A stretch of DNA of 58,203 nucleotides from Perkinsus olseni (taxonomy: Eukaryota > Perkinsozoa > Perkinsida > Perkinsidae), in contig JABANP010000325.1 in assembly GCA_013115135.1 (NCBI GenBank), positions 1-58,203 of the forward strand, read 5' to 3'. Both the position numbers and the translations under genes were made by a program. This document shows, piece after piece, positions 817-56,178 of the stretch. Each line of letters starts with the position of its first letter. The stretch's first letter is position 1. The notes under the pieces are model-generated. The model did not search any database and was not told the DNA's origin. It saw nothing but the letters and a program-made list of their open reading frames with translations.

Positions 817-1142
817 ATGAAGCCCTTGTTCGTTGTGACGATTCTGTTCATCTTTGGCGGAGTGGTTGGTGCTCCATACGATCAGACCGTGGCTAACGGT
901 ACGGATAAGCTAAACTACCATATTCTGGTGGAAATCTTGGGTGGTCATTTCTATAAGATTGATGATACCACCACCGTCAGTGATGCGGTCGCATCGGAGG
1001 GCGGCGACCTCGAGTACAGTGCCTTGTGCATTGCGTGCCTTACTTGCCTCATCGACGTCTTGGCTCCCGCTTGTTGGCCTATCTTGGCCGGATCATCCGG
1101 CCCGGATGCGGCGGGACCTTCTGTCACTGTTGCGATGACTGA
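817..1142 (+). pseudogene. Small Cys-rich secreted protein, copy A1, frameshifted
   Basis: The ATG at 817 opens a signal peptide (MKPLFVVTILFIFGGVVGA) and a mature part starting PYDQ, closely matching the intact copy at 7773-8084. The C-terminal CxxCxxC cluster is still present, although its last eight cysteines cannot all be read: positions 1088-1107 hold a 14-bp insertion of the 6-1-6-1-6 type (CCGGAT, c, ATCCGG, c, CCGGAT) absent from the three paralogues. It shifts the frame within the Cys-rich tail, so the last four cysteines of the family pattern are lost and an unrelated tail runs to about 1230. Either this copy is dead or it makes a protein with an altered C terminus. Confidence 0.75.
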
Positions 1143-1230
1143 AAGCGAACAAGAGTCGTTCATAGTATTCACTCTTTACTGTTGCCAGATCATATCTCAA
1201 CTGACATACCGTTGCCTCGTTATGATTTGA

Positions 1231-2971
1231 TGCTCATTAATCCATCAGTATACATTCATTTCCCGCCATTTTTTTAACGACTTTGATCCCTCCCCTTCGT
1301 ACGAGTAAACTTAGTCTTACCTGTTCGTATTCACTGGAAAGCTGGACTTGTGTGGTACTCTTACCGGAGACAGACACTATGCAAGGCATGTCGCGGCGTG
1401 GGTGGCACCGCACATTGGAACTCGATGCTACCCATCACGTCCAGTACAATTCCGCCAGCTGCTCAACCCCTTCTTCAGCTTATCCCCACGGCGGTTCCAT
1501 CCGGTGCAATTTATATGGCTCATCCCACCCACTGGCGTGCGCCTAAATTTCGAGATTTTCATCTCACCATGTTCTATTTCACCGTAAAATTTTCACGCAG
1601 CCTCCTCGCTCTGGCTGTTTTCCATAGCATGTTCATGATACTGAAAACACGCCATGACCGCCCTGTCACCGATGTGACACCTTGCTGTAACATCAAATTG
1701 GCAAAAATTTGCCATTTTGAGTTTACCTCGGGCCGCATGGTAGATCAAGCCACCGATGAATAGACCAGGACTCATTATAATACGCTCTATTCTCACCTTC
1801 TCCCTGATGCGTCATTTCCGGGCCGTGGTTCAATCCTTTGCCCCCGCTATGCCATATCACGAGAGTTATGAATAGGAGGACGTTGCCGAAAAGTCGCTCG
1901 CAACTTGCCAGTCGCAAGTAGGACCTATCAAGTACTTGCGTACCGATACGTGCCAAAGACGATGCGAGCGCGTCGCTGACTGAAGATCCTTGACCGTCAA
2001 GAGCTTTTAACGCCCACTCTGTTGCACGCACGAGGTGTAAAGGTCTAGTTCTATTTGGGAGGCCTTGCCAGTCGCTGGAGTATCAGCTATGCACGCATGC
2101 ACAAGATTATCGGCGCATAATGAGTAACCGTTACTCCTCGGCTGTGTGCTTTTGGCTGAAGTTTTGGCGAGACTCCTGCTAAGGGAGGGATCCTCCTGAA
2201 GAAGTTAGGCAGTAACTTCTCAGTTGCTCTAAGGCTCAGAGTCTGAGTCCATCTTCCTCCCCATAGTGGTCCAAGCTACTTGCCCGAATTATGGTGATGT
2301 GTCAGGAGCCGCAGGTTAAATGTCGGGCAAAGATGGGACGAGTTCAGCTACGAGGCTCTCAACGCGAGTGCTGGGTGAGATGTTGCTCTCGGAGCAGGGT
2401 TTGTGTGATCCAGCTAGCACAATACCCAGATATAGGAGAAGTCAATCTCAGGAACATATTAACGAATCAATGGTAAATCACTAACGCCTAGCAGAACAGT
2501 GGCCTGCGCACCCGTGACACGACTACGGTTTGCATATAAGCTGTGTCACCATCGCAGCGCAGACCGATTTTATCAGATGGCCGAGACAAGTTGCCGGCGG
2601 ACTATCATGTTGTATGTCTCTGCGGGGCCATGTCTAACGAGAGTGGTGGATGTGGTTCGAAGCCTTGGAGATGATGCATCAAGTGGAATATGCAGTTGCA
2701 ACCTGAGAGTCTTCATCATACAACAGTTGCATTGCAGCTGTTTTAAAGGTGCTGTTGCCAATATCGAGAGAGTGCCGTTGTATAATACGAAGCCTGCGCT
2801 GGTTCTCGGGGGCTTCCTGAACAACATCGCTGGCGAAACCTGCCGGGATACGCAATAAGAAGCTTCGGATTAAGTCGAAAGAATTTCTCAGAAAACGCAC
2901 TATTTTTCCGCTGTTTTTCCTATTTTTCAACGGAAAATTACCAGAAATAAAAATAATCTATTTTTCCACGT
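1231..2971. other. Repetitive downstream block of module A, no supported gene
   Basis: Both A modules carry this block. Short ORFs in it (for example 2499-2858) are conserved between copies only because the DNA is duplicated: the equivalent ORF in A2 differs at its start because of a 14-bp insertion, and neither shows a recognisable domain. Fragments of this block recur in diverged form at about 13630-13790 and 15540-15660, so it is probably a dispersed repeat. Old palindromic triplets are visible at 1898-1917 and 2228-2247. Confidence 0.6.
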
Positions 2972-3600: not shown

Positions 3601-3623
3601 GGTGAATAACAACGTTTGATGGA

Positions 3624-3643
3624 ATGAACCGTTCATTATGAAC
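3624..3643. repeat. Palindromic triplet insertion, empty sites known
   Basis: The structure is ATGAAC, c, GTTCAT, t, ATGAAC. The three other modules have a single ATGAAC here (near 338, 7296 and 10679), so B1 gained exactly 14 bp. Confidence 0.9.
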
Positions 3644-4044
3644 GTCATCGAGCGCATCCCGCATCCTGGGCGTGCCGAAGGCGAGCGAGTATCGTATTGT
3701 CGCATACAGTACAAGGGAGGAGCGGGGGATCGCCAGGCGATGCACAGTCATAGGCTGTCGAGCATCAGAGAACACTGTCTCTTAGAGACAGCCTCTCGCG
3801 GGCGTGCAGGTAGTCCACACGAGGCGGGTGGGCGTGATCTTACTAGCTGATCGTTCAGTCGTAATGAGCGAGTCCCTGATATCTACTAGTCCGACTAGTC
3901 TAGTCGTTTCCGTTCCGCAAGAGGTCCTCGAGGCGGGTGCGACGCACTCGGTTTGTCCAACTCGTGAATCGTGGCACGGGCTCCTCTGCTCCGCGTAGCT
4001 TCACGGCGTCACCTTGTTCGTGTAGCCCGCTAAGCTAAAGATGA

Positions 4045-4081
4045 ACTCGTGACGAGTTACTCGTCTTCAAGACGACGTCTT
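4045..4081. repeat. Nested palindromic triplets
   Basis: An older triplet (ACTCGT, g, ACGAGT, t, ACTCGT at 4045-4064) is shared by all four modules, with one substitution in A1 (747-766). In B1 alone a second one (CGTCTT, c, AAGACG, a, CGTCTT at 4062-4081) has been added at its right edge, overlapping it by three bases. Confidence 0.9.
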
Positions 4082-4128
4082 GGCCAGAAGCCTGAAGACA
4101 CCCATCAACCCACGCTCACTGTAGAGAC

Positions 4129-4440: not shown

Positions 4441-4732
4441 GAGCAAGCTAGTGTGGAATGGTCTATAGTAGGGACTCTTTGCTCTCGCCGAATCATATCT
4501 TCGCTAACATACCGTTGCTAGGTAATGATTCAATTCTCATTAATCCATCATTATACATTTAAGTTCGCTCCATTTATTTAACGACTTCGATCCTTCTCCT
4601 TTATATGAGTAAACTTTGTCTTACCCATGATTCCACTAGGCCCGTATTTCCTAGAAAGCTCGACTTGCGTGGTACTTTCACCAGAGACAGAACCTATACA
4701 AGACATAGCGAGGCGTTGGTGGCGACGCACAA

Positions 4733-4752
4733 TGGCCCAGGGCCATTGGCCC
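4733..4752. repeat. Palindromic triplet insertion in B1
   Basis: TGGCCC, a, GGGCCA, t, TGGCCC. The matching place in B2 (near 11760) has one TGGCCC, a difference of 14 bp. Confidence 0.9.
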
Positions 4753-4818
4753 TCGATGTAACCCATCTCGTCCAGTACAACAGGTGGAGCTGTCACCAGT
4801 CTATACTCGATCCCGGAA

Positions 4819-7272: not shown

Positions 7273-7772
7273 GGTGAATAACAACGTTTGATGGAATGAG
7301 CGTCATCGAGCACATCCCGCATCCTGGGCGTGCCGAAGGCGAGCGAGTATCGTATTGTCGCATACAGTACAAGGGAGGAGCAGGGGATCGCCAGGCGATG
7401 CACAGTCATAGGCTGTCGAGCATCAGAGAAGACTGTCTCTTAGAGACAGCCTCTCGCGGGCGTGCAGGTAGTCCACACGAGGCGGGTGGGCGTGATCTTA
7501 CTACCTAATCGTTCAGTCGTAATGAGTGAGTCCCTGATATCTACTAGTCCGACTAGTCTAGTCGTTTCCGTTCCGCAAGAGGTCCTCGAGGCGGGTCCGA
7601 CGCCCTCGGTTTGTCCGACTGGTGAATCGTGGCACGGGCTCCTCTGCTCCGCGTAGCTTCACGGCGTCACGTTGTTCGTGTAGCCCGCTAAGCTGAAGAT
7701 GAACTCGTGACGAGTTACTCGTCTTGGCCAGAAGCCTCGAGACAGCCATCAACCCAAGCTCACCGTGGAGAC

Positions 7773-8360: not shown

Positions 8361-8386
8361 GGCGTGGCCCACGTCCACGCCGCGTG
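8361..8386. repeat. Palindromic insertion of about 20 bp in A2
   Basis: Relative to A1 (near 1390-1405) about 20 bp are added, containing GCGTGG, then CCACGC, then GCGTGG. The first spacer is seven bases instead of one, and the spacer itself contains a reversed copy (CCACG), which could be two overlapping events. Confidence 0.7.
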
Positions 8387-8446
8387 GGTGGCACCGCAAA
8401 TTGGAACTCGATGCCACCCATCACGTCCAGTACAATTTCGCCAGCT

Positions 8447-8466
8447 GCTCAAGTTGAGCAGCTCAA
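8447..8466. repeat. Palindromic triplet insertion in A2
   Basis: GCTCAA, g, TTGAGC, a, GCTCAA. A1 (near 1460) has one GCTCAA; the difference is 14 bp. Confidence 0.9.
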
Positions 8467-8920
8467 CCCCTTCTTCAACTTATCCCCACGGCGGTTCCAT
8501 CCGGTGCAATTCAAATGGCTCATCCCACCCACTGGCGGGCGCCTAAATTTCGAGATTTCATCTCACCATGTTCTATTTCACCGTAAAATTTTCACGCAGC
8601 CTCCTCGCTCTGGTTGTTTTCCATAGCATGTTAATGATACTGAAAACACGCCATGACCGCCCTGTCACCGCTGTGACACCTTGCTGTAGCATCAAATTGG
8701 CAAAAATTTGCCATTTTGAGTCTACCTCGGGCCGCATGGTAGATCAAGCCACCGATCAATAGACCAGGACTCATTATAATACGCTCTATTCTCATCTTCT
8801 CCCTGATGCATCCTTTCCGAGCCGTGGTTCAATCCTTTGCCCCCGCTGTGCCATATCACGAGAGTTAAGAATAGGAGGACGTTGCCGAAAAGTCGCTCGC
8901 AACTTGCCAGTCGCAAGTAG

Positions 8921-8940
8921 GACCTAATAGGTCCGACCTA
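8921..8940. repeat. Palindromic triplet insertion in A2
   Basis: GACCTA, a, TAGGTC, c, GACCTA. A1 (near 1921) has one GACCTA; the difference is 14 bp. Confidence 0.9.
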
Positions 8941-9186
8941 TCAAGTACTTGCGTACCGATACGTGCCAAAGACGATGCGAGCGCGTCGCTGACTGAAGAT
9001 CCTTGGCCTTCAAGAGCTTCTAACGCCCACTCTGTTGCACGCACATGGTGCAAAGGTCTAGTTCTATTTGGGAGGCCTTGCCAGTCGCTGGAGTATCAGC
9101 TATGCACGCATGCACAAGATTATCGGCGCATAATGAGTAACCGTTACTCCTCGGCTGTGTGCTTTTGGCCGAAGTTTTGGCGAGAC

Positions 9187-10655: not shown

Positions 10656-11155
10656 GGTGAATAACAACGTTTGATGGAATGAACGTCATCGAGCACATCC
10701 CGCATCCTGGGCGTGCCGAAGGCGAGCGAGTACCGTATTGTCGCATACAGTACAAGGGAGGAGCAGGGGATCGCCAGGCGATGCACAGTCATAGGCTGTC
10801 GAGCATCAGAGAACACTGTCTCTTAGAGACAGCCTCTCGCGGGCGTGCAGGTAGTCCACACGGGGCGGGTGGGCGTGATCTTACTAGCTGATCGTTCAGT
10901 CGTAATGAGCGAGTCCCTGATATCTACTAGTCCGACTAGTCTAGTCGTTTCCGTTCCGCAAGAGGTCCTCGAGGCGGGTGCGACGCCCTCGGTTTGTCCA
11001 ACACGTGAATCGTGGCACGGGCTCCTCTGCTCCGCGTAGCTTCACGGCGTCACCTTGTTCGTGTAGCCCGCTAAGCTAAAGATGAACTCGTGACGAGTTA
11101 CTCGTCTTGGCCAGAAGCCTCAAGACAGCCATCAACCCACGCTCACTGTAGAGAC

Positions 11156-12391: not shown

Positions 12392-12445
12392 TCTGTGCTA
12401 CAGAGTCTGTGGCTAGAATGGCGCATCTGGAGTCCAGATTCTGGA
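12392..12445. repeat. Two palindromic triplets
   Basis: 12392-12411 is TCTGTG, c, TACAGA, g, TCTGTG (one mismatch); 12426-12445 is TCTGGA, g, TCCAGA, t, TCTGGA (perfect). They are 14 bp apart. Confidence 0.85.
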
Positions 12446-12559
12446 CGTCCTCCCCGCTGATCGGAGAAGTATTCAATAAGATTAGCAATGGATTCAGAAG
12501 CAGTACCACTGCATTGAGAAGACCACAACAGCTGGCGACTGCGACACTTCTTGCAGACC

Positions 12560-12690
12560 ACCATCGTGTCGAATTGGCGTGATGACAGCCGGCGGCGCCC
12601 TTTGTGCTGAGACTCTCAGCCTGAGAGTCGTGGCGATAGTACCATATACAGCACGATGTACAAGGAAACCCCCAATCGAGGCTCACTCTG
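12560..12690. repeat. Dispersed repeat, second copy at 32270-32390
   Basis: The two stretches align over about 110 bp (shared landmarks: a GGCGCCCT word, then GTACCAT and TACAGCACGA). The copy at 12.6 kb carries a perfect triplet at 12607-12626 (CTGAGA, c, TCTCAG, c, CTGAGA), whereas the 32.3-kb copy has a single CTAAGA. This is an occupied/empty pair outside the A/B modules; the length difference is 16 bp, that is 14 plus a 2-bp indel. Confidence 0.75.
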
Positions 12691-13127
12691 TAGCACGCAC
12701 GCGCATCCCTGTCTTCTGTTCTGGGGTGAAGTACAAAATCATAGGGAGAGGTACAAAATCCAAGGAAGCGCGTGCGACAGAGAGGCAAAAGCAACAGAGA
12801 AAACCCCTGAACTGCGGGTGAAGGCAGGAACGGGAAACCAGAAACCCCTGCTGAAACCCGACAGGGCAACCCGATCCCGGAACTGTTACCCAGGTCAACC
12901 AGAAACCCGAGCTGTTGCCCAGGTAATGCAGATCCCCGAAAACGCTTCCTTGGATTTTGTACTTCTCCCTTGGATTTTGGGAATTACCCCTTCTGAAGCG
13001 GGCCGCGCAGTACTTTCTCTACGGGGAGTCGCCGTCGGGGACTTTTCTCGATAACCTCGAGAACACGCCGGGCGCTTGGTCGTGTGGCGAATCGTACACT
13101 GCCAGTCAGGGATAAGGCACTTCTGCC

Positions 13128-13257
13128 TGGCGAGTCGCCAGTGGCGACTCCCGGTTGACTCGGCGTGAGGATGCTCAATGCACCATCTTGGGCCAAGATT
13201 CTTTGCCCAACCCAACAAAAACCGGGGTCTTCACTAGATCAGAGTCTGATCATCAGG
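13128..13257. repeat. Cluster of three palindromic triplets
   Basis: 13128-13147 TGGCGA/TCGCCA/TGGCGA (perfect), 13186-13205 TCTTGG/CCAAGA/TCTTTG (one mismatch), 13238-13257 ATCAGA/TCTGAT/ATCAGG (one mismatch). All have 1-base spacers. A further one at 13545-13564 has one mismatch. Confidence 0.8.
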
Positions 13258-14182: not shown

Positions 14183-14648
14183 TTCGTCAGCGTAGGCAAC
14201 TGATTCAAGCTATTGCCGTCTCAGCTCCTCTGCTACCTATCCTTTGGCGTGATACCAACTTTTTGGGAACTCGTAGCGCTGTTCAGAGAGCGCATTAATC
14301 GTAAGGTACTTTACAGCAAGCGGCTTCGTCAGCCCCTTCTCGCAGTGGTACATCGTCGCTGCAACTGCTGTCGCCGAAGAATATCCCATTATTATACCAG
14401 GGAATTGGGAGCTCGGTCGAGGCCTTGCTCGTCAGTTACTTTGTATTCTTTTTCACGTTTGCGTAAGTTGGGAGGTTCTGACAGCGGCGCGATGGTAGTC
14501 ATTTTAATTTATAAGACTCGCACAAGAGAACGCAGCGGCTGTTCGGTATTATTATTCTCATCATAGCATGATCCTGGATTATCGAGTATGGCACAGGGCG
14601 ATCTTAGGTACTTCCGGAGATTGAGATTGAGGGTGTCCGGTAAGGGCA

Positions 14649-14668
14649 AGCCGACTCGGCTTAGCCGA
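14649..14668. repeat. Palindromic triplet
   Basis: AGCCGA, c, TCGGCT, t, AGCCGA; perfect, in non-coding DNA. Confidence 0.85.
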
Positions 14669-14998
14669 GCCCTGTGGATAATCTGATATCGTCGATGGCA
14701 GCCGGAGTCATCAATGTAGTAGCGTGTGAGACCGCTTCGACCCGTTGGGAAGTGTCTAGGGAGGATCTACCGGCTTATTATTAATAATAATTTATTATCA
14801 CATGCACGTGTGGCGTCGTTGCGAGAGAGCGTTGTTCTGTCGATGAGCTATTGAACGGAGTGAAAGTCAGTGAGCTGGACGGTATTGCGGAAGAGAAAGT
14901 CGCAAATTGAACATTTTTTCCTGAGCGCCCACGCTATTCATGGGTAACGCATGCCTTGAGTGAGTCCCGCATTTTTTCCTCTGGTATGAACTATTAAA

Positions 14999-15539: not shown

Positions 15540-15660
15540 ATAAGACTAAGATAAGATAAGACTCATTATAATACGCTCTTTTCTCTCCTTCTCCCCGATG
15601 CATCCTTTCCGAGTGGTAGTTCAACCCTTTGCCTCCGCTGTGCTTAGCACAGTGTGCTAC
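15540..15660. repeat. Relic of module A/B tail with a palindromic triplet
   Basis: 15550-15640 matches 8770-8855 (ACTCATTATAATACGCTC, then TGATGCATCCTTTCCGAG type words). At 15639-15658 the relic has TGTGCT, t, AGCACA, g, TGTGCT where module A has a single TGTGCC-type word: another occupied/empty pair. Confidence 0.8.
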
Positions 15661-17987
15661 ACCTTTTAAAGGCCTATTTCGCGATTAGTAAGATCAATTT
15701 CGCAGGGCGAGCGATTACCCGCGCCAAGATATGCCTTAGTAAGATCAATTCCGCCAGTGCGCGCGATAGTACGATCATCGTGCGTCCCAATCGCCTGGTG
15801 ACACTACCTGCTTACCTTGCCAGGTTCGGCGTTTAGACGGCAAGGGAGTTCCCACAGAGCTCGGTGAGAAGTCCTCCGAGGTGAGCAGCTTCAAGTAGCG
15901 GCAGCGTAAGTCTGTAGATGATCAGACCATCGGCCTCTGTATAAATTATAGAGGTGGGCCGCGGATATCAGATAATGCTCCGAAGAAGTGGAACAAACCG
16001 AGGGCTTCGTGCGAATTAGTTCGGTGGGTGCTCCACTGGCTTCGTTGAGAGGCATGAATGTGTCAGATTCGCTCACGAATATGAGGCAACACTCGGATCG
16101 AACCCTTACGCCCAAAAACCCTTTTTAGTGAGCTGGGAAGGCTTCTTCGTGATGGCTGTCAGTCGTGAGGTCCTCACGCTTTTCATTCACTTTGAGTTGC
16201 CGTATAGGATGATAGTGGTGGTCGAAGCCACTGGTATCTCATCTGACACCTCGGCGTTTCGCGAAGTAATTTGTGATTTTCAGTGTGTTTTTCTTAGCCA
16301 TGGAGGAAGAAAAGCCATGAATGAGGAGCACTCCAATGTTCTTTGATGTCCTTCACGCCGAGCGAACAATCATTTTGCGTTCCTTCGGTGGAATAGCACC
16401 CTTACGTTACCTCGTTGTAGGCAATGTAGTAGTAGAACGCAGCATGAGTAGGTTAGGCTCTCACGTAGGGAAGGTAGAGTGAGTAGTTCTGGAGAGAAGT
16501 ATTTGATGACGGATTGCTAAATATGATGAAGCCAGTGAACGCACAGGAAATCCCAGTCTACCTGCCGTGCACTCACTCAGCATTGAAAAGAGAGAGCCGT
16601 GAACCGACTCAATTGAGTATAACGAAGACCCAATCGGATTGATTGAGATTCATTAAATCATAACGTACAGACAACAGTAACTTATAGCTCTTAGATATGC
16701 GCTAAGATCTTGTGGGACAGACCGGCACAGCAGTGTCTGGGATCGAACAGCCAGAGAGGGGGTGCTCCTGCCATGCAACGTTACTGTCGATCCGAGGTCG
16801 AGCTAAACTTCCAAATTCCCATCACACACAGTATCATTGATAGCTCGGTTCGGACTTCTTAAAAAACTGCCGCACACAACAGGTTGACAGCTCCGTACAG
16901 CCACAGCAACATCTCCATGCTAATCATCGCGTCGCTACCAGTGGTGATCTTCCAATATAGACGAGTGACTCGTTCGTCAAACAATAACTTATAGACACCT
17001 CAAAAATAATAATTTATAAAAAACCTAAAATAACTTATTAACCTAACATACCATCTCTCACCCTGGGTAGGTAACTCACCCAACTATTCAGGGTCGTCTA
17101 TCCTAGGTAATCTACCCCCCTCGGTGGCTCCGGTTCCTCGGCCTTCTTAACCAGATAGTGAAATCGGTCACATATAGTAGCGAATGAGCCAAATTCCTCC
17201 TTCAGCTTCGACTCCACAGTCGAACAAGTAGTTGCCGGGTTGTTAGAAGGTTTCACGTGGATAGACTGAAAGATGAGGGACAACTATGGTTGAATTCGTA
17301 CTAATGAGAAAGATTCACGCTAATCAAAGGATTGTGAGCTACCCGGCTCTTACGAAACTGATTTCATTCCCAATGGGATCAGACAAGGATCTCCTATCAG
17401 ATGAATATTCCTTGTACTCGGCAGGCTCCCCATGTAGCTTATGCCAAAGCGAGTGGCCGGATGGGTAATACCCGTATAATATTCCGGCATAACTGAAACC
17501 AGACCAAGAACGTGGAGTGGGTACCCTTCACCTCAATGCTTTACATCTCAGCACCGAATACATGATACTTGGGAGTCTCGGGGCAAGTAATGGTGCTGGT
17601 CCGCAGGCGGTTCTGCCAGCGAGGATCGATCCATACCAGCAGTGATTTTCTAGCGGCAGTTAGGTCATCGTTGCTGAATAGGCACTTCGTCTCGTTCGCA
17701 ATTTTGAGCGGAGGGAAGTCCTGAGAAGCGCGAAGTATGACTGTATTGCTGGAGGTACTCCAACGAAGGAATCAAACCGTTCCACAAAGGCGAATACTAA
17801 AAATTCGTTCGCCCCTCTCGCCACTCTTGCTTACGTTAGCAACACGGAATGCGCCGAGAGCATGGCTGGCAGGTGGGTTACATATCATTACCACAGCAAC
17901 AGCTGCTGCGATGGTGATCTGCCTGGTAGCCATTCGGATGAAGTCTGAACACTGTGCAGAGATGAGGGTTAATTTAACCGAAAAGAT
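15661..17987. other. No supported gene
   Basis: Only short ORFs without domains are present (for example 16128-16346 on plus; 15891-16115 and 17098-17283 on minus). The last has a charged, plausibly coding C terminus (KLKEEFGSFATICDRFHYLV) but no context to call it. Confidence 0.4.
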
Positions 17988-18022
17988 CCACACCTCGTTT
18001 AACCCGGTTAAACGAGGTGTGG
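17988..18022. repeat. Perfect 17-bp inverted repeat with a 1-base spacer
   Basis: 17988-18004 pairs exactly with 18006-18022, with base 18005 between. Flanking CGAAAA and TTTTTCG words extend the fold. Confidence 0.85.
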
Positions 18023-18426: not shown

Positions 18427-18532
18427 AGCTTGTACTAATTCAGTTATTTGAAATAACTGAATTAGTACAAGCTCAACGAATATGCCACTTGGCACGAAAT
18501 AACTTATTTCGTGCCAAGTGGCATATTTGTTG
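18427..18532. repeat. Two adjacent long palindromes with 1-base spacers
   Basis: 18427-18449 pairs with 18451-18473 (23 bp, spacer base 18450). Directly abutting it, 18474-18502 pairs with 18504-18532 (29 bp with one mismatched pair, spacer base 18503). Together they form two back-to-back hairpins ending 12 bp before the ATG of the gag-like ORF at 18545. They share the single-base spacer of the short triplets but lack the third word. Confidence 0.9.
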
Positions 18533-19700: not shown

Positions 19701-20327
19701 TCGGACCAACTCCGACTTTGGCTCCCTCTAGTCTGTCTACGAACCGAGAGTCCCGAAGCACTTACTACGGGAGTCTCCGTACTTACTACGTAGTCTTACT
19801 CGGGAAGGCTTCCCGATATCGCATTATATATCATTCACATCACCATTGGTTAGCCACCAATGGTGACTCATCAATGACTGGTCGACAATGGCAACTTCTT
19901 AACGAAGGTCCTTCTGGAGGCTGAGATACTACACGAGGCGTCGTCAAAAGACAATGTCTACGAGCGCTCCTGCTCCAGGAACCGAGAGGAGCTCAAACCT
20001 TGAACCTTAAGGGGTACACCCCTACTTCCCTGCTAAGGAAGAATGATCTGTCGCTGTGCGACGGAGCGACAAATTCGCTTTTTCCGAAAATGAAACGAAT
20101 TTCATTGAAATTTCACTATGAAATTCGAATTTCGGAAATCATTTCGAGATTTCATGGAAATCGACAACCCTGATCCAATCTGAAGCGGGGATCTTCACGA
20201 AGTAGACGACTCTCAGAATATTGCTGTGCGCTTATCCGCTGTCTTTGCTCATGCGTCAGCTCGAGGCGCCCTTTCGGAGAAGGATGAGGAAACGCGAGAG
20301 TCTCTGCATCTTGGTCGCGTTACGCGA

Positions 20328-20400
20328 CTCGCCGCGAGTCACTCGCGTATAAGCGAGATGGGTTCCCTATCCTCTGTAGGGGCTAGTAGCCCCGGGCTAC
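20328..20400. repeat. Two palindromic triplets
   Basis: 20328-20347 ACTCGC/GCGAGT/ACTCGC and 20381-20400 GGGCTA/TAGCCC/GGGCTA, both perfect with 1-base spacers. Confidence 0.88.
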
Positions 20401-22366: not shown

Positions 22367-22386
22367 TCCCAGTCTGGGACTCCCAG
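22367..22386. repeat. Palindromic triplet
   Basis: TCCCAG, t, CTGGGA, c, TCCCAG; perfect. Confidence 0.88.
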
Positions 22387-38046: not shown

Positions 38047-38402
38047 GCAGTTATGATATGAAATTCGTCTATCTCAAGTAACATCTCTCCGCCTTCCGGA
38101 TCCCCAGCACCGAACTGTTCTCGATGGCTCCTACTCTGGTCCCCCTTTGCATGAACAATGGATACCCCAGCACGGGCTAGCGCTAAATCGTGTCCGCTAT
38201 GATCTAGCAGATGATTCTAGCAGTTCTGATATGATATTCGTCTATCTTAACTTAAGATTCTTAAGTAACATCTCTCCGCCCTCCGTACCCCTAGCATCGA
38301 TTTGTTTTCGATACTATCGAAATCGAACGCTCCAACCCTAACCTGCCCTTGGATGAGCAATGGATACTCCCGCGTGGGCTAGCGCTAAATCGTGTCCGCT
38401 AT
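38047..38402. repeat. Tandem duplication with two palindromic insertions in copy 2
   Basis: Copy 1 (38047-38200) and copy 2 (38220-38402) share TCGTCTATCT, AACATCTCTCCGCC, AATGGATAC and GGGCTAGCGCTAAATCGTG blocks. Copy 2 is 29 bp longer. 14 bp of this is a perfect triplet at 38245-38264 (TCTTAA/TTAAGA/TCTTAA) where copy 1 has one diverged word. Another 14 or so is a fold-back addition near 38307-38326 (TTTCGA/TCGAAA words). Confidence 0.85.
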
Positions 38403-39973: not shown

Positions 39974-42691
39974 GAACTCGGGAGAGCAAGCAGTCTATTC
40001 AACAGCGCTTGAGAATTCCGGGGAATGGGCCCAGAGGCTCATCACAACTGCATAGCTGTATATCGTTTCCTGTATAACGCCTAGTTCTAGACAGCGAGCA
40101 CTGCTCGCCGAGCAGCACATCGAGAAGAGTCTGAGCCGATATGACCCGTTTCGTGCCACAATGACCGTGACGCCGAAAATTTCGTTTTAGAAGTCACTCA
40201 TCATAGCGGTATTTTCAAAATTATTTTGACAAAATACTATTTTGTTGTCATCGTGCATTCGATGATAGTCGTCCCGAGCGTTACTCGCGGTGTGTCTTTC
40301 AGACGAGGTTATTATTATCCTGGGGGGCGAGTGAATTGTCGAGGAATAAAGAGGGAAAGAAACCGTTCGATCTAACTACCGTGGAGCCTGTTCTGAAGCT
40401 GCTAGAGATACACAAAGCCAGTAACCCGATGACCCAGGTTCGATTCTAGGCGCTGACATTTTATTGGCTTGCGAGGTGCGAAAGCCGAGCGTGAGTGGGT
40501 GGGAAAACATGGTACTTGGCAGTCCGTGCCCTTACCGGGCGCCGGTGGGGATGTGAAGTTGTGGGCCCATGTGAACTCACCGAAACTTGTTATGACGAAC
40601 AGGGGCTTCAAACCTGAGGATAATATGAATCAACGACGTGAGTTGCATGGGAGACTTTCTTGAGAGAAAGTCACGCCCTACTACCTTTTGGGCAGTGACG
40701 ACAGGCCTCAGAACCATCGCGAGAGAGAGCAAAAGTGAGCTGTCTTCAGGTGCGGTTAAGCTCAGGACCACCTGGACTGGTCGTAAGCGACGTCACGCCT
40801 GGTGGCCCAACTGGTATTCCCCCGGCGGTGGCTCTTGAGTGCAGCGCTGCTCGTCATGAGAGATGTTTCGGTGGTGTCGTCTGAGTTGAGTCATGACGAC
40901 GAGTAGAGGGAAAATCATCTACATGCAGGGGTTCGGGGAGAGTGACTTGCATCGCCATGGAGAGTGGGCGTTGGTATAGGAAAAAGGACACCTCGTCAAT
41001 GCACTGGCACTGTTGTTCCTTGAACTTAGTAGTGTTATCCTGTTCATAGTAGCGGAGATTTCCTTATGTATTTCCTACGGCAGAAGTACTTTTATGATAC
41101 CATAAAACCCCTATTTAGTAGTTGAAGGTTCTTTTGGTGGAGGAACGCGGAGGAGGTGAGCAACGTCGTGGCGCGGTGACGAGTCTTCGCGATCCGTATC
41201 TTGTCAAGAAATAACTTAAAATCATGAACGAGGTTATCTCCCACTCAGCTCGTTTTATTGCGCTTGTTATGGTATGTGATCGAGAATTTTCTTTTCAAAA
41301 AAGTATTATTGTCGATCTCTTTAAAGTAAGAAAAGATAAAAACAGTTCTCTTTGGAATTTAAAATTCCGAATTTTCTAAGAGAACTCTTATTTTTATCTT
41401 CAACCGAAAATCGAAAAGCAGATTTCGCGGCTCGGCGGCTGCGGGAGCCGTCGTTTGGGCGAGGGTGCCTCTCGCTCCGGTAGCGAGAGGCATTGAAACG
41501 ACGCGGAAAATCATGTGGGTTCCGTTAGAGGCTGATGGTTAGATCAATCAGTACCTTTGTGGTTATGGAATAAAGCAGTCAGAGCATGGCATGCCCTTGT
41601 GGCCTCGGCCTTGTCCTTGTTCACTCGGCCCCAAACCATGCCATTCAGAAGCCCACCGTGAGGGTGAAGCCATCATGCCAACACTCGAGGATATCACATT
41701 AGTGAGTGAAGCCACCGGTTTTGCAGTAGGGTCGAAATTAGGACATTAATTTGGTGAATGAATACAACCTAACGCATACAACCTACAAGATACTTTGCCG
41801 CGATCAAAGTCCCAGCAATGCATAATGGCTTCGGCGTTATTTTCGTGCTTGGGACAACGTCTGACTCGGCAATTCAAAAGGTGAAAACCTTTTGCAGTAC
41901 TCCCCTCGTCAGCTGCACCCGCGGCCCGCGGGCCGCGGGCATCTGTGAGACGTCACTCGGTACTACCAGTTCAGGTAGACACAGTCTACCTAGCTGTGGT
42001 CGCGTGCATGGTGGAGTGCATGTGGCGCCGGCTGCGGCGATGATAGCTCTTCCCTTCCCCTACTAATTTTTTGACGCAAAACACGGTAGACCTATTAGAG
42101 CGCCCTGAGGACTCCAAGTTCCGGTCGGCAGGAATTTCTTCCACTCAACTTCCATCGAAGACCATTCGAATTGCACATATTTTTAGCGCTAGCCTAGCTT
42201 AGCACTGCTAGCTCAGCGGCCGCTAACCCGCTAGCTCTGGAGACACCAGGGGGCGACGAGTTCTCACATGCTGACGATTACTGATGGCGTCTCAGTCGTG
42301 GGTTCAACTCATGTGATTACACGACCGTCCGAGATTACCTCAACCTCGTCCACCACTAGCTGAGTAAACTCGGCACTATAACCTACCCGATCAGCTCTTC
42401 GACTTGCGTACAATTGCGCGCGGTCGTCTCCACTCACGAGAGTCGCTGGTTTTAAGAATGAAAGAGCCGACTGCAAAGATCCCCTCCCTCGCTCCCGAGG
42501 TTGAGGCCGTTTTGACCGAGGCATGCAGAGGCCCGTGTTAACGTACTGTAGGGGAGCTTAACCGCACTCCTGCCACTGGAGAGCTCGGGCGTGAGTGCGT
42601 TAAGGGGACGCTGGGACATGAGCCGTCCCGCTAGTTCCCCGTCATACCGTTCGCTACAGTCCACGACGTATCCAATTGTTACACCTTGGCA
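39974..42691. other. No supported gene
   Basis: Contents seen: an imperfect inverted repeat at about 41330-41400 (GATAAAAAC...AGTTCTCT and its mirror), a GTGGCGCGGTGA motif near 41168 and a triplet at 41919-41938. ORFs at 41818-42066 and 42309-42524 have no support. A tRNA-like T-arm word at 40438 has no matching acceptor stem. Confidence 0.45.
41919..41938. repeat. Palindromic triplet from a self-complementary word
   Basis: CCGCGG, c, CCGCGG, g, CCGCGG; perfect. Confidence 0.85.
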
Positions 42692-42711
42692 AGGTGAGTC
42701 ACCTTAGGTGA
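42692..42711. repeat. Palindromic triplet just upstream of a start codon
   Basis: AGGTGA, g, TCACCT, t, AGGTGA; perfect. It ends 7 bp before the ATG of family X member 2, so it would form a hairpin in the 5' leader. Confidence 0.9.
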
Positions 42712-42718
42712 CCTTGCG

Positions 42719-48200: not shown

Positions 48201-50138
48201 ACTCGAAGGTGCACTCGAGTTGGAGCTTCCTGACTCAGGTCCGAGAGGTGCTATGATATTCTATCGGATAGGTCAGAAGGGAGTGGATAAAAAGGGCAAC
48301 GCCATAGCTTATGATTATGCGGAAAAGATTAACTCGACTGTTTTCCCCGGCATGCAAGTAAGCGATTGTCGATTTTTGTTCACCCTTCACCATGAATAGC
48401 CTTCATAAATTATGATATTATGAATCATAATATTGCTGCTATCGGAGGGCCTTACTAGAGACTATCGGAGCATCACTGGTCATGAACCCGGTGTCTATAG
48501 TATTCGCGCGTATTTGGTTGTTTCTCTCGTAGTTCTACGGAACTCGTACGCGTCGTCAGGATCAGCGGGTTCGTTTGTGTTTCGAAAAATGCGGAAAATT
48601 TGTTTGAAGGCGGAGAGTTCTTCGTTACTTCAGGGAGGACCTCACAACCACATCATTGCGGGCCTATCTGTCGCCCTAAAGCAGGCAGCTTCGGTCGAGT
48701 TTCGGGAGTATCAGGAGCAGGTCAGCGGCGATTTGTAGCTCAAGTCTGACGACATATTCGGATCTTAGGTTGTTGCCAATGCCGCGGCGCTGGCCACGGA
48801 GATGCAGAAGTTGGGATTCAATTTAGTTTCTGGAGGTGAGGATGGTGTGTCTTTTCTCAGGGGAGCATCTCCGTGGATTCTGGGCGAGAGTTGGTCGATT
48901 TCAGGTACGGAGAATCACTTGATGCTGGTTGATTTGAAGAACAAGGGGATCAATGGTAGCAAAGTCGAGAAGGTAGGGGGTGCTGAGCTACTACTCACTT
49001 TGGGAACTGCGGGGAGGGGATTTTGTCGGGTACCATTCAAGCACGCAAGGGGCCTTAGGTCCACTGCGAGTTCTTTTTTAATAAAAGTTCTCACCTGGGC
49101 GCTGTGGGATTGCGCTGGGGTTTTCTGTGCCGAAAGAGTGGTTCTCCAGTTGAATATCTTCTCTATCAAATCTCAGGTGTGTGAGCTTGCCTCCATCACT
49201 CTGAATAAGAACACCGTACCGGGCGACAGGAGTGCGATGAACCCGAGCGGTCTCAGAATTGGAAGCCCAGCGATGACTTCTAGAGGTGCTATGGGGACTC
49301 GCCGTTTTGAAGTGGTTGCGGGATTCGAGTATGAAATTGTAGTGTACTTGAAGAACTCAATAGGGTAACTCGAGAGGAGAGAGTTATGTTAGTAACAGCG
49401 AAAGACATACAGAGACAGATTGGATGAGCTTAAGTAGGAAGGACTCCCTCAGGAAGGGACAACAATTGTGTAGATACATCACAGAAATGGTGTGTCGAGA
49501 ATGGGATGTAGCAAGCGGTTGTTGACAAGCATTTGTCGTTTATTAGGTCGCTTTGAGTTAGCGGTGCTATGGCACGTCCTCCACGTGACTTCCGTTCCTC
49601 GAGCTACCGATTAGTTCAAATTTGCGGAGTGTTAGATGTCTTTCAGGGTGCACTGAAGAGGACTTCCGTCGAGTTGCGCGTTTTCTTAATCGGGCAGTGG
49701 ACATAGCTTTGGAGGTGGGTCATTGGAAACTCACTAGTCTTTCGCCTCGCTACTGCTACTACGGCTAAGGAACATAATTTCTGGCCGGATTTTAATTGAG
49801 ATAGGAAATGGTTTTTGCTAGATTTTTCCGGATCCGAAAGGTCTTTTATCGGGCCAAACGTCGCGGTAATAGGCTGCTCACTAGTAGTTGAGATGAAGGG
49901 ACAACAGCGATGAGTCACTGACGCTCTGTCCGCCTTCCGACGCCCACTGTCCCTCCCAAAACGGTTGGCGTCGGTGCTAGAGTTTGGTTACGATAGAATA
50001 TCCTCGTCGACGGTGCAGGTACAGAAGCGTGTCGGGTCCTCCAAGCAAGCGGCGTTCAACAAATTCATCGAGGAACATGACATGCCGGAGATTGAGGAAC
50101 TGAGGAGAGAGGTGGGCAGTCCGCGACAGGCCCGATAG
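45221..50138 (+). CDS. SHMT: Serine hydroxymethyltransferase, mitochondrial type, about 15 exons
   Basis: This PLP enzyme interconverts serine and glycine with tetrahydrofolate. The exons I can place are 45221-45349, 45797-45915, 46190-46270, 46623-46708, 46756-46841, 47370-47478, 47812-47900, 47990-48042, 48122-48185, 48239-48357, 48634-48720, 48769-48835, 48905-48972, 49177-about 49338 and 50019-50138. All use GT-AG introns and every junction is phase-consistent. Exon 1 is an Arg/Ser-rich targeting peptide ([20 protein letters not shown]), hence mitochondrial. Hallmarks are [61 protein letters not shown], the PLP-lysine box [10 protein letters not shown] (exon 9) and [11 protein letters not shown]. 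Total length is about 480 residues, normal for the family. One oddity: exon 4 has seven A's after SPE where five or eight are needed, which breaks the frame. An upstream ATG at 45191 is also possible. Confidence 0.95.
45341..45372 (+). promoter_or_regulatory. SHMT intron 1 donor containing the GTGGCGCG motif
   Basis: Exon 1 ends GATCCGGAG at 45349 and the intron begins GTGAGCAATTTCGTGGCGCG. Almost the same string occurs near 41155 (GAGGTGAGCAACGTCGTGGC) with no recognised exon, and the core GTGGCGCG recurs at 18366, 32613 and 32657. It may be an intronic repeat or element end. Confidence 0.4.
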
Positions 50139-50905: not shown

Positions 50906-52318
50906 TGCAGTTTGCGAGTGGCTTGAGAACCTCTGCAAGTTCAATTTTTTCGCCTCTCCCACGGAGCTCGAAGCCGAAGCCGAGTTGCCGAAGCCGGCCT
51001 CGGGCGTCTTCTGACGAAGTGTTTTCGGCCTCCACCGTGTGCGTATCAGTAACTCATCATCAGTTGAATCCGAGTATCGTCTCGCAGGTCTGCTGAAGGG
51101 AAATACTCGCAGGGTTCATCTCGGAGCTCCGCACAGAAGTGGAATCTCGTCGAACGCGTGCTCGAAGGTGGCAGAAGCAGAGATGAGATGATGAGCAGGT
51201 TCGGCAACTCAAATATAGCCCGACACGGACCGCCCGAAAGAGGGAAAGGGATGATCCCATGGTGGGTGTTGGATGTGTTCTTCGCGATCCCTCTGCATTT
51301 TGCAGCATGCGCGAGGGGTTTCTGGCTTGTAGCGTGATAGTTCAGGAGGATTGCCGGGGCTACCCCGTTACCTGCGTACCCGTGCGACAAGTTGTCGGGT
51401 TCGGGTTGTCGCCGACAACACGTCGCACGGAAGAGACCGAAGGAATTGTGCCAGGCACAATGTGCCTCCGCAGGACCGCACCTTCTGGGTGCTGGACCGC
51501 GAGATTTCAGTGATGGGATGAGTTGGAAAAAATCGGTAAATCGAAATGGAGCGGTACTTCACCTCGACAGTGGCTGGCAGTGCCGACAACGGCGTTTTCG
51601 GCACGCCGGTAGTGGACTGCAGCAGTTCAACCTGAACGGCTTGCGATATTGAGGAGAGACACTGCAAGACACAACGCAAGTCATGACCAGTTGCTGACTG
51701 AGGGGCCCTTTGAGAGGGTACGTAATACTGAGATAATGCGAACCAGCTGCACGCAGCTACGCCAGTCACTCTTAAGAAGAGAAGATGAGGAAAGACGAAT
51801 CTACTCGTCAGATTTACTCCGCAAAAGTATACAGAAGCTTGCGTCACTGGGTGAGACCGAATCGCGGGCCATAGTGGGCCATGCCGGCTGCTTACAAAAT
51901 CCACCAACGCACGGCGCAGTCGGAAACGGTCATTAGTCCGATGGGTCCAACGACGATAAACATGAAGTCTCTCGGATCATCTTCGCACAGCGCTGTAGCG
52001 ATTGCATACGGAGTGTAAGGCGATGTTGTATCAGCGCCACCACAGTACGCTAAGAAGCCACCAGTACTCGGTACAGCAGTGCACATCGTACTTCGTTTCA
52101 TTATAGATTTGAGAAGAAAATACCCGACAGAAGATGTTGCTCGATGACGGACTGATAGCGAGTAGAGAAAAAACGAACGATAACGGGCACGATCGGGTGT
52201 GAGAGATATACAGAGGCCAGCCACCTGTGACAGGTGACCTGTCGTCGAGTAATATGAACAACAGAATTACAGACCACTGAGTGCTCATCATTCAGAGGCT
52301 CTGCGTGAAGAACCAGGT
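50906..52318. other. No supported gene
   Basis: Overlapping ORFs on both strands at 51368-51936 show no motif. Triplets at 51447-51466 (TGTGCC/GGCACA/TGTGCC) and 52223-52242 (ACCTGT/ACAGGT/ACCTGT) are perfect. A TTGTCG/CGACAA palindrome patch lies at 51386-51416. Confidence 0.45.
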
Positions 52319-53107: not shown

Positions 53108-54955
53108 GGCGAGAGAGTGGAGTTGGTGTCCAGAAAGGAGCTACAGGAGACTGATTTAAGAATGGTCGCCCGCCATTGCTAGGACAACCTGCTTAGCATG
53201 CCCTGCTACTTGCAACTAAGCTGAAGGCTAATCTCTCCAGTACTATTTCAATAGCTACTCAGAGTTATCCACCAACCAATGAGCCAACAGTATCTACGGA
53301 GCGTACCTGGTGAAACACGTGTCCTGATCAAAGTCCGATGATCGTGAGTAGCTGCGCAGCCAGTGCACGCAAGCAAGGCTAGCAACGCTATTTGCACACG
53401 TTACGTGTGACACGTACGAGCACAGCAACCGACACTATTTTGGCGGGAAGTAGACTAGCCCTGAGGAGAGGAGCTTCCCCGCGGAAGAAGAGCGTACAGC
53501 ACCAGCCACAGGTCTACTCCGAGAGGCGCTATAGTGGCACGAGGGGTCGGCAGCGGCGAGTCCTTGAAACAGTAGCTTGCTGACGATGAGTAACGATGAT
53601 CGAGCCTACCGAATCACATTCTGTGAACGCGTCACGGTGACGCAGCCGCGCAGTGTATCTTATGTGAAGTTCGTTCCATGCAACTTGGTGCTATCGAGTT
53701 AGTAGTTGATATAAGGTCCCCGTCATGCCAGCTACAGCGAGCCCAACATTTTTCACCAATGTGCGACGTTCCATTTGCGAGTTTTCAACTTGGCAACTTT
53801 TGGGCGTGACGTCGAGGCTGACACAGACCTGCCAGCCGTAGACACGAATCCAGCAGAAGACGATGAGAGGAGCGAGCTGAGGGTTCTGACGATAGCATGC
53901 CGACGAATGCGAGCGATCGCCGAGCCACACAGTCAGACTTAAAAAAATCTGCTGCATGAGATTCTCAGATTTTTTTAAAATATGCGTAACGCGTTGAGTT
54001 GACGAAGAGATTGGGAATACAAGGCCACATGAAACTGACTAACATCCGCTATGATACTACACAAATAATTGAATTCTGTGCTTTGCTGTATTTTTCTATG
54101 AACCATTTTTTACGGTCCGTGAATCATTCGACGGAATGAAGTAGGAAAAGGATTGAAATAATGCTATGAAGCTATAACCCTCTCGCCAAAGCAACGAAAC
54201 GTGCGACGAAAATAGTGTAATGTTTATACAGCAGATCCTATCTTGCTCCGACAAGAAGCTACGCTGAAGCTAAGCTAAGTAGCGGATGATAAGAAACAAC
54301 AGATGAAAGATTGGATTCCAAATGGCAAAACTCGGGTGTTGTGTTCTCAATCAGTCAGTCTCTTCACAAAAGTGTTTTCACGAACAAAGTCGTCTTTATC
54401 CACCGCAATACGAGAATGGCCATTAACCATAATTGTCAGTTTTCTGGTTCAGTTTTTCTTACTCGCCCCCAGTTTCTATCGGATGGGGAAAGCTCACCCG
54501 GGATGGTTTTCGACGCCGCCGGAGTTAAACCTTCTCGAGCTGGCGCAGACTTGGTTGTGTCTTCAAAGTTTATTCCGATTCTGATAAGAAGCCCAGTGTC
54601 TAATCGACGAATCTGTCGCGTGTCAAGTCAACTCAATCAAACACGGCGGCTGGCATCAGTCCTATCAGTAACTGGTCATCGGTTCAAGCAGGTTTGATCC
54701 GAGCTCTCTTCAGGCCGTCTGTGCGTTGCTACTACCTTATGAGCCATCCTCGCGGTTCTCGACAGAGTAGAGGCCCTTTTCGTGGTGCTAGCAAACTAGG
54801 TGAGAGTTCTCAGCTCTCCATCGGGCCTCTGTCGAGTCGGGATTGAGGGTCTTCTGAATTATCGTTCACGGACGCTCGAGTGACCAGAAGGCACACTTGG
54901 TTTGCTCGGTCCTGAGAGTCTAATCGCAAGAAAAAAGTATATGAGTTGTTACTAG
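53108..54955. other. No supported gene
   Basis: A triplet at 53396-53415 (ACACGT/ACGTGT/ACACGT) is perfect. An A/T-rich inverted repeat (AAAAAAATCTG...CAGATTTTTTT) spans 53942-53980. 54483-54650 is the second copy of the repeat at 50738. Confidence 0.5.
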
Positions 54956-55404
54956 TACTAAAGGGAGTTTCAAAACTTCGTGAACAACTTTGAACTCTTG
55001 AAATTTCTAAACGATTGACTGTACGAAACTGAAACTTTGTGAGAGTATAGCTAGCATGGTGAGGAATGAACATGGCTATTATGGCATTCTCACTCGTGCC
55101 CTCCTAGTGACTGCTGAGGGAGTTGAGCAAGTCGCAAGGGTAACGTGAGATAAGTTTCCAGCCTTCATTCGAGCCCCAATGCCTCTCAATTAACTCTAGT
55201 CGAGGGCATCCCCACCAGCGTGAGATGAAACCGACAGGACACGACATGCTCATTAGTCCCATAAAAGAGGGTCTTTACAACAGCCACGTTCATTCCTCAC
55301 CATGTTAGCCATAATATCACAAAGTTTAAGTTTCGTACAGTCGGTCGTTGAGAAATTTCAAGAGTTCAAAGTTGTTCACGAAGTTTTGAAACTCCCTTTA
55401 TAAC
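54956..55404. repeat. Fold-back element with arms of about 118 bp
   Basis: The left arm 54956-55080 (AAAGGGAGTTTCAAAACTTC through GGTGAGGAATGAAC) is the reverse complement of the right arm 55285-55404 with about ten differences. The loop of about 205 bp has no ORF. The left arm carries a 7-base CTAGTAC addition near its outer end. Size and structure suit a non-autonomous terminal-inverted-repeat transposon; no clear target duplication is visible. Confidence 0.85.
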
Positions 55405-56178
55405 AATATGTATTGTCTCGTCGTGTAGTAGGTGTAGTTGTCGAACGCGATTAGATTGGGCTCATAATAACCGAGATAGAGCAGATAGAAAGTGGAGTAC
55501 TTGAGAGAAATGGCTGATAATACGAAGCTAGTATGAGGACAGCTCCCTTGTGTAATGTAGACTGTGCAGTGGATTGGGCTGATTGTGAAGGAGTGCAGCG
55601 GGTAGAGCGAGTAGCCGAGAGAATTCTAGATGCTCGGTTGTGTTATGTAAACATGGTATGCTTCTCATACCATTTTAAGTATCCTTGTCCTTGAAGATAG
55701 TATTCGATTAGTGATATGATATTACTAATATTACTAGTAAAACCTAGCAACGTTTACAAGCTAGATGAACGCCAAGCTTGGGGACAGAAGTTGTGTGCGA
55801 GTGTTCTCGGAATTTCCGAGTCGGAAACCTGTGCGCCCTTATGATGGAGGGTGACCCATAGCACTAGAGGAGCGACCGATAACTGCATGACTGTTACAGT
55901 GACCGACCGTGACGTAACTCAGTGCGTTACAGCACTACTGCATGTCTCAGACCTATCAACCCGACGGCCGAGAGTCGCTCCAAGTCCCAGTCTGGAGATC
56001 AGCGACGATGTGTGTGTATCTACAGCAGCGTGCTTGTGAATAGCTGCTCCGGTCGCTGCCTACTGATGATCTTCCCAATTCTGTCGCCAAGCTAGCCTCC
56101 GTCAACAATCTGCCCACATCGTCTCACTCTTGAATCACGTGGCCTGATGGGAACGTGATTACTGTGATGCTTCTGCTT
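55405..56178. other. Intergenic, one palindromic triplet
   Basis: 55807-55826 is TCGGAA/TTCCGA/TCGGAA (perfect). 55655-55680 has a GGTATG/CATACC hairpin. No gene supported; further 5' exons of the next gene could lie here. Confidence 0.5.

What the first reader, a model, noticed from the sequence alone, without database searches (positions are those of the whole stretch)
1088..55826. A target-templated insertion signature (U-n-U'-n-U, 6-1-6-1-6) scattered through the genome
I found about 41 distinct loci where a 6-bp word is followed after one base by its reverse complement and after one more base by the word again, plus about 15 with one mismatch. The words are all different, so this is not a repeat family in the usual sense; only the geometry is conserved. 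In random sequence the perfect pattern needs 12 matching positions, so about 58203/4^12, or roughly 0.004, are expected. Compared with empty paralogous sites the gain is always 14 bp: one base, inverted target, one base, target copy. It can be seen as a 6-bp target duplication around an 8-bp core that is itself the inverted target. Candidate origins are hairpin-end repair after transposon excision, a fold-back template switch with fixed step, or an unknown mobile process. I know of no described element with this geometry.
Basis: partly seen in the sequence, partly recalled or inferred. Interest (0 to 1): 0.97.

Follow-up and report, generated by a model that had tools for sequence, protein, structure and literature searches.

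The report
Genome-wide hAT transposon excision scars
Scattered through this Perkinsus-like parasite genome are 14-base insertions that each copy their own 8-base target backwards; they are likely scars left where hAT-type jumping genes cut themselves out, the two hairpin-capped ends being predicted to be resealed through their shared target copy.

Summary
The window holds 52 perfect 6-1-6-1-6 words, and a 200 kb sample of the same genome holds 57 more. Both spacers are complements of the outer flanking bases in 93 of 109. So an 8-bp target t1..t8 becomes t1-t7 / its reverse complement / t2-t8. An 8-bp target duplication plus flank hairpins offset by one base would give exactly this, as in hAT transposon excision. 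Strongest support: a second class carries two inverted arms, one per flank, up to 24-25 nt long, joined with filler or overlap. It occurs 16 times (13 not nested) for 8 bp/offset 1, and 0-1 times in each of 12 other settings. Targets show the hAT bias nTnnnnAn. The genome encodes hAT transposases, and two of eight hAT loci examined show terminal repeats with 8-bp duplications. A common Mutator-like element here has 10-bp duplications and no matching scars. The organism is Perkinsus (a transposase 95% identical to P. olseni). Not shown: an element still sitting at a scarred site. Unexplained: why one product dominates, and an estimated 10^4 scars against few surviving hAT elements.

The parts
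1087..1108 (.). perfect scar p-w6-q'-w6'-p'-w6-q
   Evidence: insertion relative to other repeat copies
3623..3644 (.). perfect scar
   Evidence: empty allele in copy 1
3885..3906 (.). perfect scar, shared by repeat copies (also 587, 7543, 10926)
4044..4065 (.). perfect scar, shared by repeat copies
4061..4082 (.). perfect scar, a second event next to the older one at 4044
4732..4753 (.). perfect scar
7543..7564 (.). perfect scar, shared site
7702..7723 (.). perfect scar, shared site
8446..8467 (.). perfect scar; empty allele in copy 1
8920..8941 (.). perfect scar; empty allele in copy 1
10926..10947 (.). perfect scar, shared site
11085..11106 (.). perfect scar, shared site
12425..12446 (.). 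perfect scar
12606..12627 (.). perfect scar
13127..13148 (.). perfect scar
14648..14669 (.). perfect scar
14777..14798 (.). perfect scar
15638..15659 (.). perfect scar
20326..20347 (.). perfect scar
20379..20400 (.). perfect scar
20683..20704 (.). perfect scar in a CTAGTA-rich stretch
21003..21024 (.). perfect scar
21192..21213 (.). perfect scar
21468..21489 (.). perfect scar
21567..21588 (.). perfect scar
22099..22120 (.). perfect scar
22366..22387 (.). perfect scar
23475..23496 (.). perfect scar
23537..23558 (.). perfect scar
24466..24487 (.). perfect scar
26911..26932 (.). perfect scar
29218..29239 (.). perfect scar
29501..29522 (.). perfect scar
30001..30022 (.). perfect scar
30174..30195 (.). 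perfect scar
38244..38265 (.). perfect scar
40094..40115 (.). perfect scar
40215..40236 (.). perfect scar, nested in the inverted core of an older one (40209-40244)
41354..41375 (.). perfect scar
41918..41939 (.). perfect scar
42691..42712 (.). perfect scar, nested in an older one (42682-42717)
51446..51467 (.). perfect scar
52222..52243 (.). perfect scar
53395..53416 (.). perfect scar
55806..55827 (.). perfect scar
587..608 (.). 6-1-6-1-6 word with one spacer base off rule; the same holds at 9569, 10366, 20690, 21111, 21230 and 24512
   Evidence: cost 1
8361..8388 (.). double-arm scar: arms 6 and 7, filler 1
17966..18012 (.). double-arm scar: arms 7 and 18, filler 8
18443..18510 (.). double-arm scar: arms 24 and 25 (16 and 17 nt beyond the 8-bp target), filler 5
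24092..24192 (.). double-arm scar: arms 9 and 9, filler 69
29544..29584 (.). double-arm scar: arms 21 and 8, overlap 2
48402..48431 (.). double-arm scar: arms 7 and 10, overlap 1
51384..51419 (.). double-arm scar: arms 7 and 8, filler 7

Best explanation
Each 14-bp insertion is likely the scar of a hAT-type DNA transposon that had inserted with an 8-bp target duplication and later cut itself out, leaving hairpin-capped chromosome ends that would have been opened and resealed through the shared 8-bp target copy. In steps: (1) inferred: the element sits between two copies of T = t1..t8. (2) Inferred, with established hAT chemistry: the transposase nicks one base outside each end and closes each flank into a hairpin, t7 joined to t8' on the left and t2' joined to t1 on the right. 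(3) Inferred: a host nuclease opens both hairpins away from the tip, leaving 3' overhangs that end in t8'..t1' and t1..t8. (4) Inferred: these 8-nt stretches are perfectly complementary, so they anneal, flaps are trimmed and gaps are filled, giving t1-t7 / t8'..t1' / t2-t8. (5) Shown in sequence: exactly this product, with duplication 8-2=6 and inverted core 8. (6) Shown in sequence: a minor class keeps both opened hairpins as two separate inverted arms joined with filler or overlap.
For: Only TSD length 8 with offset 1 gives the full inverted core: 93 in 258 kb. All other lengths 6-12 and offsets 0-2 give 0-9, the 9 in a low-information setting. [quoted passage not shown] Double-arm class: 16 for 8/offset 1 against 0-1 in each of 12 other settings; 13 of the 16 are not nested in a second scar; arms reach 24 and 25 nt. 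One more, outside that set (L042:1295), has an empty paralog in L041. The unfiltered scan gave 176 hits against 1 in one Markov shuffle. Target bias T2 33/89 and A7 35/89, p = 1.2e-4, matches nTnnnnAn of the hAT transposase Hermes (PMC10368747, passages). 25 8-mers next to a hAT terminal repeat of this genome fit the scar profile, p = 0.0024. The genome has 21 hAT dimerisation-domain matches, and 2 of 8 hAT loci show terminal repeats with exact 8-bp duplications. A high-copy Mutator-like element has 10-bp duplications in 6 of 9 copies read, and 10-bp scars number 0. One SNM1/Pso2/Artemis-type domain is present.
Against: No element-occupied allele of a scarred site was found in the few places looked at. 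Scars far outnumber elements: about 17,500 perfect words extrapolated (95% bootstrap 9,800-26,400) against 35 exact terminal-repeat hits (about 5 expected from the reversed control). No abundant short hAT element with 8-bp duplications appeared in the held sequence. Published hAT footprints are varied and mostly short, whereas one full-length product dominates here. Short footprints show only a weak excess (two-base form 10 against 4-6). Six of 8 hAT loci showed no clean ends and duplications in the stretch held. The setting n=6, trims 1 and 2, gives 9 against about 1 expected, which I cannot explain. A palindrome abutting a hAT end (L048) is two bases off the rule.
Confidence: 0.8

Rival explanations
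1. Replication template switching: the polymerase jumps to the other strand, copies 8 bases backwards and returns, with a fixed step.
For: A single inverted copy with a resumed direct strand is formally a four-point template switch, and the 14-bp class alone fits it.
Against: Lengths are fixed at 8 and 6, whereas such events are known to vary. It does not give two inverted arms from both flanks with filler, nor a transposase-like target bias.
Confidence: 0.06
2. Another cut-and-paste superfamily with flank hairpins or 8-9 bp duplications (Mutator-like or an undescribed one) makes the scars.
For: 38 MULE-domain matches in the genome and a high-copy MULE-like short element in the window. MULE and hAT transposases are related (PMC5225508, passages).
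Against: The measured duplication of that element is 10 bp in 6 of 9 copies and 10-bp scars are absent. Muta1 excision was mostly precise when duplications were present (PMC5225508, passages). Target bias matches hAT.
Confidence: 0.1
3. A hAT-type transposase acts without an inserted element: a domesticated or misfiring enzyme makes staggered, hairpinned breaks directly at target-like sites.
For: Scars greatly outnumber surviving elements. Domesticated hAT enzymes that make hairpin-capped breaks exist, such as Kat1 of Kluyveromyces (PMC4763223, passages).
Against: Kat1 still needs terminal-repeat sites (same passages), and none flank the scars. The product needs two copies of the target, which insertion supplies naturally.
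Confidence: 0.1
4. Assembly or sequencing artefact.
For: One assembly only; no raw reads examined.
Against: Scars are inherited at the same site by several diverged repeat copies (588, 3886, 7544, 10927), decay gradually (93, 74, 68 with 0, 1, 2 changes against 0, 0, 1.4 in shuffles) and carry target bias.
Confidence: 0.02

Closest known systems
Ac/Ds (hAT) excision footprints in S. cerevisiae, plants and Candida albicans
   Same: Palindromic P-nucleotide insertions centred on the complement of the base next to the transposon end; hairpin opening then end joining; arms up to 20 nt in yeast (PMC5873905, passages).
   Different: There many footprints occur, mostly short. Here one product with the whole 8-bp target inverted dominates and is scattered genome-wide.
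Hermes hAT transposase
   Same: 8-bp duplications, nTnnnnAn target preference, hairpin on the flanking DNA (PMC10368747 and PMC6900584, passages). The one-base offset of its first nick is recalled, not from a call.
   Different: Biochemistry is known for Hermes; here only scars and elements are seen.
V(D)J coding joints
   Same: Hairpin-capped flanks opened off-centre to give P nucleotides, joined with additions (RAG and Hermes hairpins compared in PMC6900584, passages).
   Different: RAG cuts at the exact signal boundary, so no base offset; here the offset is one base on both sides.
TSD-microhomology repair of mPing excision sites (PMC4561436, title and abstract listing only)
   Same: The target duplication itself supplies the microhomology for repair.
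   Different: mPing repair is described as precise; here the annealed strands are inverted hairpin arms, so 14 bp are gained.

Membership tests
hAT excision footprint | 8-bp target duplication | tested here: met
   Scar length 8 only among 6-12; hAT elements with exact 8-bp duplications at 2 of 8 loci
hAT excision footprint | Palindromes centred on the complement of the base next to each transposon end | tested here: met
   102 of 109 and 99 of 109; double-arm class only at offset 1
hAT excision footprint | nTnnnnAn target preference | tested here: met
   T2 33/89, A7 35/89, p = 1.2e-4; weak in strength, both together in 14 of 89
hAT excision footprint | hAT transposase present in the genome | tested here: met
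   21 PF05699 matches; a 581-aa reading frame with DUF4371 and Dimer_Tnp_hAT
hAT excision footprint | Element found at an allelic or paralogous copy of the scarred site | tested here: inconclusive
   None found in the few loci searched
hAT excision footprint | Varied products including short P-nucleotide footprints | tested here: inconclusive
   Varied double-arm joints exist; short footprints show only a weak excess
Replication template-switch mutation | Single inverted copy of variable length and position | tested here: not met
   Fixed 8/6/1 geometry and two-arm products
Mutator-like excision footprint | Scar length equal to the 9-11 bp duplication | tested here: not met
   Duplication 10 bp in 6 of 9 copies; scars of length 9-12: 0
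RAG/Transib-type hairpin joint | Hairpin at the exact element boundary (offset 0), 5-bp duplication | tested here: not met
   Offset 0 on both sides gave 0 for lengths 6-12 and 0 double-arm for 6-10; length 5 was not tested

The most novel reading that the evidence does not exclude
Perkinsus carries a hAT-type hairpin-making activity so active, and a repair route so single-track, that an inverted copy of the target with a 14-bp gain has become one of the main insertion mutations of its genome, with tens of thousands of sites cut and resealed; possibly a host-retained enzyme rather than ordinary selfish elements.
Probability: 0.2. Interest if true: 0.8.

Novelty: new variant of a known kind. 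Interest (0 to 1): 0.58.

Why it matters
If right, each scar records a past insertion and excision, so a readable 8-bp target word survives long after the element has gone. Counting scars by decay (93, 74, 68 with 0, 1, 2 changes) gives a history of cut-and-paste activity that element counts miss. The uniform product would make one question testable from sequence alone: what decides whether opened transposon hairpins are joined by target-copy annealing or by plain end joining. It also shows a 14-bp gain as the most frequent insertion length above 1 bp among seven repeat copies, which matters for gene decay and for indel calling in Perkinsus.

Tried and rejected
Apparent variants with 5-bp duplication and 9-bp core (10 and 9 cases) looked like a second geometry. 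They are the share, about one in four, of ordinary scars in which a neighbouring base is complementary by chance.

Introners: Gozashti et al. (PMC9860276, one passage seen) mention an 8-bp TSD for one introner, but Perkinsus is not named there and the scars carry no element.

Direct 8-mer insertion was tested and found once. Simple tandem duplications of 6-9 bp show a modest excess over Markov sequence that need not come from transposons.

Flanks of two hAT elements were joined and searched for empty paralogs. L030 had none; paralogs of L032 diverge at the site, so this gave nothing. A second look for large insertions with 8-bp overlaps between held paralogs gave none. A search for abundant short hAT elements gave none. 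A conserved ~55-bp repeat (window 2074-2128, 9087-9141) was looked at as a possible element and dropped for lack of clean ends. Ku: one weak match over the cut-off (28.3 bits); too little to argue about end joining.

The notebook entry speaks of 14 other settings; recounted, there are 12.
Full report
What was checked. A scan of the window for word/spacer/inverted word/spacer/word with word lengths 4-10 and spacers 0-5 gives 52 hits at 6/1/1 and 0-3 at the other 35 settings of length 6; hits at lengths 4 and 5 are sub-words. A general scan of duplicated length D, inverted length I and offsets gives 45 at D=6, I=8, one base beyond the word on each side. The next settings (10, 9, 5, 4) are chance overlaps of the same loci, and two Markov sequences gave 0 at D=6, I=8. 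In 20 further stretches of 10 kb from the same genome there are 57 more. Thus 93 of all 109 obey the full rule: target p-w-q becomes p-w / q'w'p' / w-q. The sample was not random (first 40 kb of one contig and first 10 kb of sixteen others). Its mean of 2.85 per 10 kb (bootstrap 1.6-4.3) extrapolates to about 17,500 in 61.5 Mb (9,800-26,400). Seven of 20 stretches had none. The age spectrum is flat: 93, 74 and 68 with 0, 1 and 2 changes, against 0, 0 and 1.4 in shuffles. Counts at 3 and 4 changes (139, 482) have high backgrounds (24, 230). This speaks for long, continuing accumulation.

Organism. A 581-aa hAT-type frame from the genome is 95% identical over 74% of its length to a Perkinsus olseni protein and 69% to one of P. 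chesapeaki. The genome is 61.5 Mb in 968 contigs. I take it as Perkinsus, P. olseni or close.

Empty and occupied alleles. The first 13 kb of the window is an array of ~3.4 kb repeats with further copies on C865 and C26. Pairwise alignment of seven copies shows 22 insertions of exactly 14 bp, the most frequent length above 1 bp. Sixteen fit the scar with at most one mismatch and a 17th after shifting the gap; the other five are one AT-rich site. Insertions are counted per copy. Several scars are shared by all four window copies (588, 3886, 7544, 10927) and are therefore old.

Mechanism. Write the target as t1..t8. hAT transposases leave hairpins on the flanks (PMC6900584, PMC4763223, passages), and hAT footprints are palindromes centred on the complement of the base next to the transposon end (PMC5873905, passages). 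With one base of offset, the left flank ends t7 joined to t8' and the right flank, on the other strand, t2' joined to t1. Opened to leave 3' overhangs, they end in t8'..t1' and t1..t8, which are complementary over 8 bases. Annealing and filling gives t1-t7, t8'..t1', t2-t8: duplication 6, core 8, gain 14. This derivation is mine; the opening and annealing steps are inferred.

The test that separates this from a template switch. If two hairpins are opened independently and joined without the 8-base annealing, the scar should carry two inverted arms, one from each flank, able to run beyond the target, with filler or overlap between. A scan for such cores gave 176 hits in the held sequence (some held loci overlap) against 1 in one Markov shuffle. 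Of these 134 have the plain 8-bp core and 42 others do not. With both arms at least 5 nt and together at least 12, there are 16 in 258 kb for duplication 8 and offset 1. The 12 other settings (lengths 6-10, offsets 0-2) give 1, 1 and ten times 0. Three of the 16 (20652, 40210, 42683) contain a second 6-1-6-1-6 word and are set aside as nested; 13 remain. Arms reach 24 and 25 nt at 18443-18510, i.e. 16 and 17 nt beyond the target. One more, on L042, has an empty paralog on L041.

Link to hAT. Scar targets favour T at position 2 (33 of 89) and A at 7 (35 of 89), p = 1.2e-4, the nTnnnnAn preference reported for Hermes (PMC10368747, passages). The genome has 21 hAT dimerisation-domain matches. Two of the eight loci fetched show terminal repeats (TAGAGATGGGCA type) with exact 8-bp duplications; six did not in the stretch held. 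The repeat occurs 35 times exactly, against 5 for the reversed control. Of 26 distinct 8-mers next to it I left out two right-end copies of one insertion and added one from L030. These 25 fit the scar profile better than random 8-mers, p = 0.0024. As a contrast, a 266-bp high-copy element (window 12724-12989; 124 match rows, 40 of 249 candidates scored) has 10-bp duplications in 6 of 9 copies, 9 and 7 in two, none in the window copy. It is Mutator-like by that length (recalled). Scars of length 10 are absent.

What does not fit. No element-occupied allele of a scar was found in the few searches possible. Elements are few, scars many; conservative cut-and-paste jumping over a long time could give this, but that is inference. 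One product dominates: partial hairpin remnants are scarcely above chance (for instance 10 against 4-6 for the two-base form), though the lowest-information forms show some excess (6-bp tandem duplications 86 against 49-61). The n=6 setting with trims 1 and 2 gives 9 against about 1 and is not explained. At L048 a palindrome abuts a hAT end but is two bases off the rule.

Known or new. Palindromic hAT footprints are known, so the kind is known. I found no report of a single full-target 14-bp product or of such scars in Perkinsus in searches. These cover open-licence full texts only, and I saw listings and some passages. Key footprint papers (Yu 2004; Hickman 2018) are not held, so earlier description of this product is possible. 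I file it as a new variant of a known kind.

Noticed in passing
window 12724-12989: A 266-bp high-copy terminal-repeat element (ends GGGTGAAGTACAAAATCC...), 10-bp duplications in 6 of 9 copies read, Mutator-like; the window copy has no clean duplication, and the site is empty on C26 and C865.
   Followed up: partly
G000:C590:9976-11194: The same 266-bp element lies in a head-to-tail array with a step of about 272 bp.
   Followed up: no
window 1-13700: Array of ~3.4 kb repeats, each with a small cysteine-rich secreted-type protein frame. The first copy reads a different C-terminus downstream of the scar at 1087-1108 than copies 3 and 4.
   Followed up: partly
window 20000-25000: Highest scar density: 27 scars with at most two changes in 5 kb; reason unknown.
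   Followed up: partly
window 39323-39691: A perfect 147-bp tandem repeat, 2.5 copies.
   Followed up: no
window 1-90: A longer fold-back near the start of copy 1 relative to the other copies, probably a double-arm event with a long right arm; read by eye.
   Followed up: partly
L048:1470-1515: A palindrome made of the target word abuts the end of a hAT element, two bases off the scar rule; perhaps a failed or repeated excision.
   Followed up: partly
window 2074-2128 and 9087-9141; also L024, L028, L031, L045: A conserved ~55-bp repeat found in both orientations in several loci; nature unknown.
   Followed up: partly
window 25501-26370, 42719-43468, 36586-37398, 52319-53107: Long secreted-type protein frames; the three of the four that were scanned (not 36586-37398) have no Pfam match at 0.01.
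   Followed up: partly
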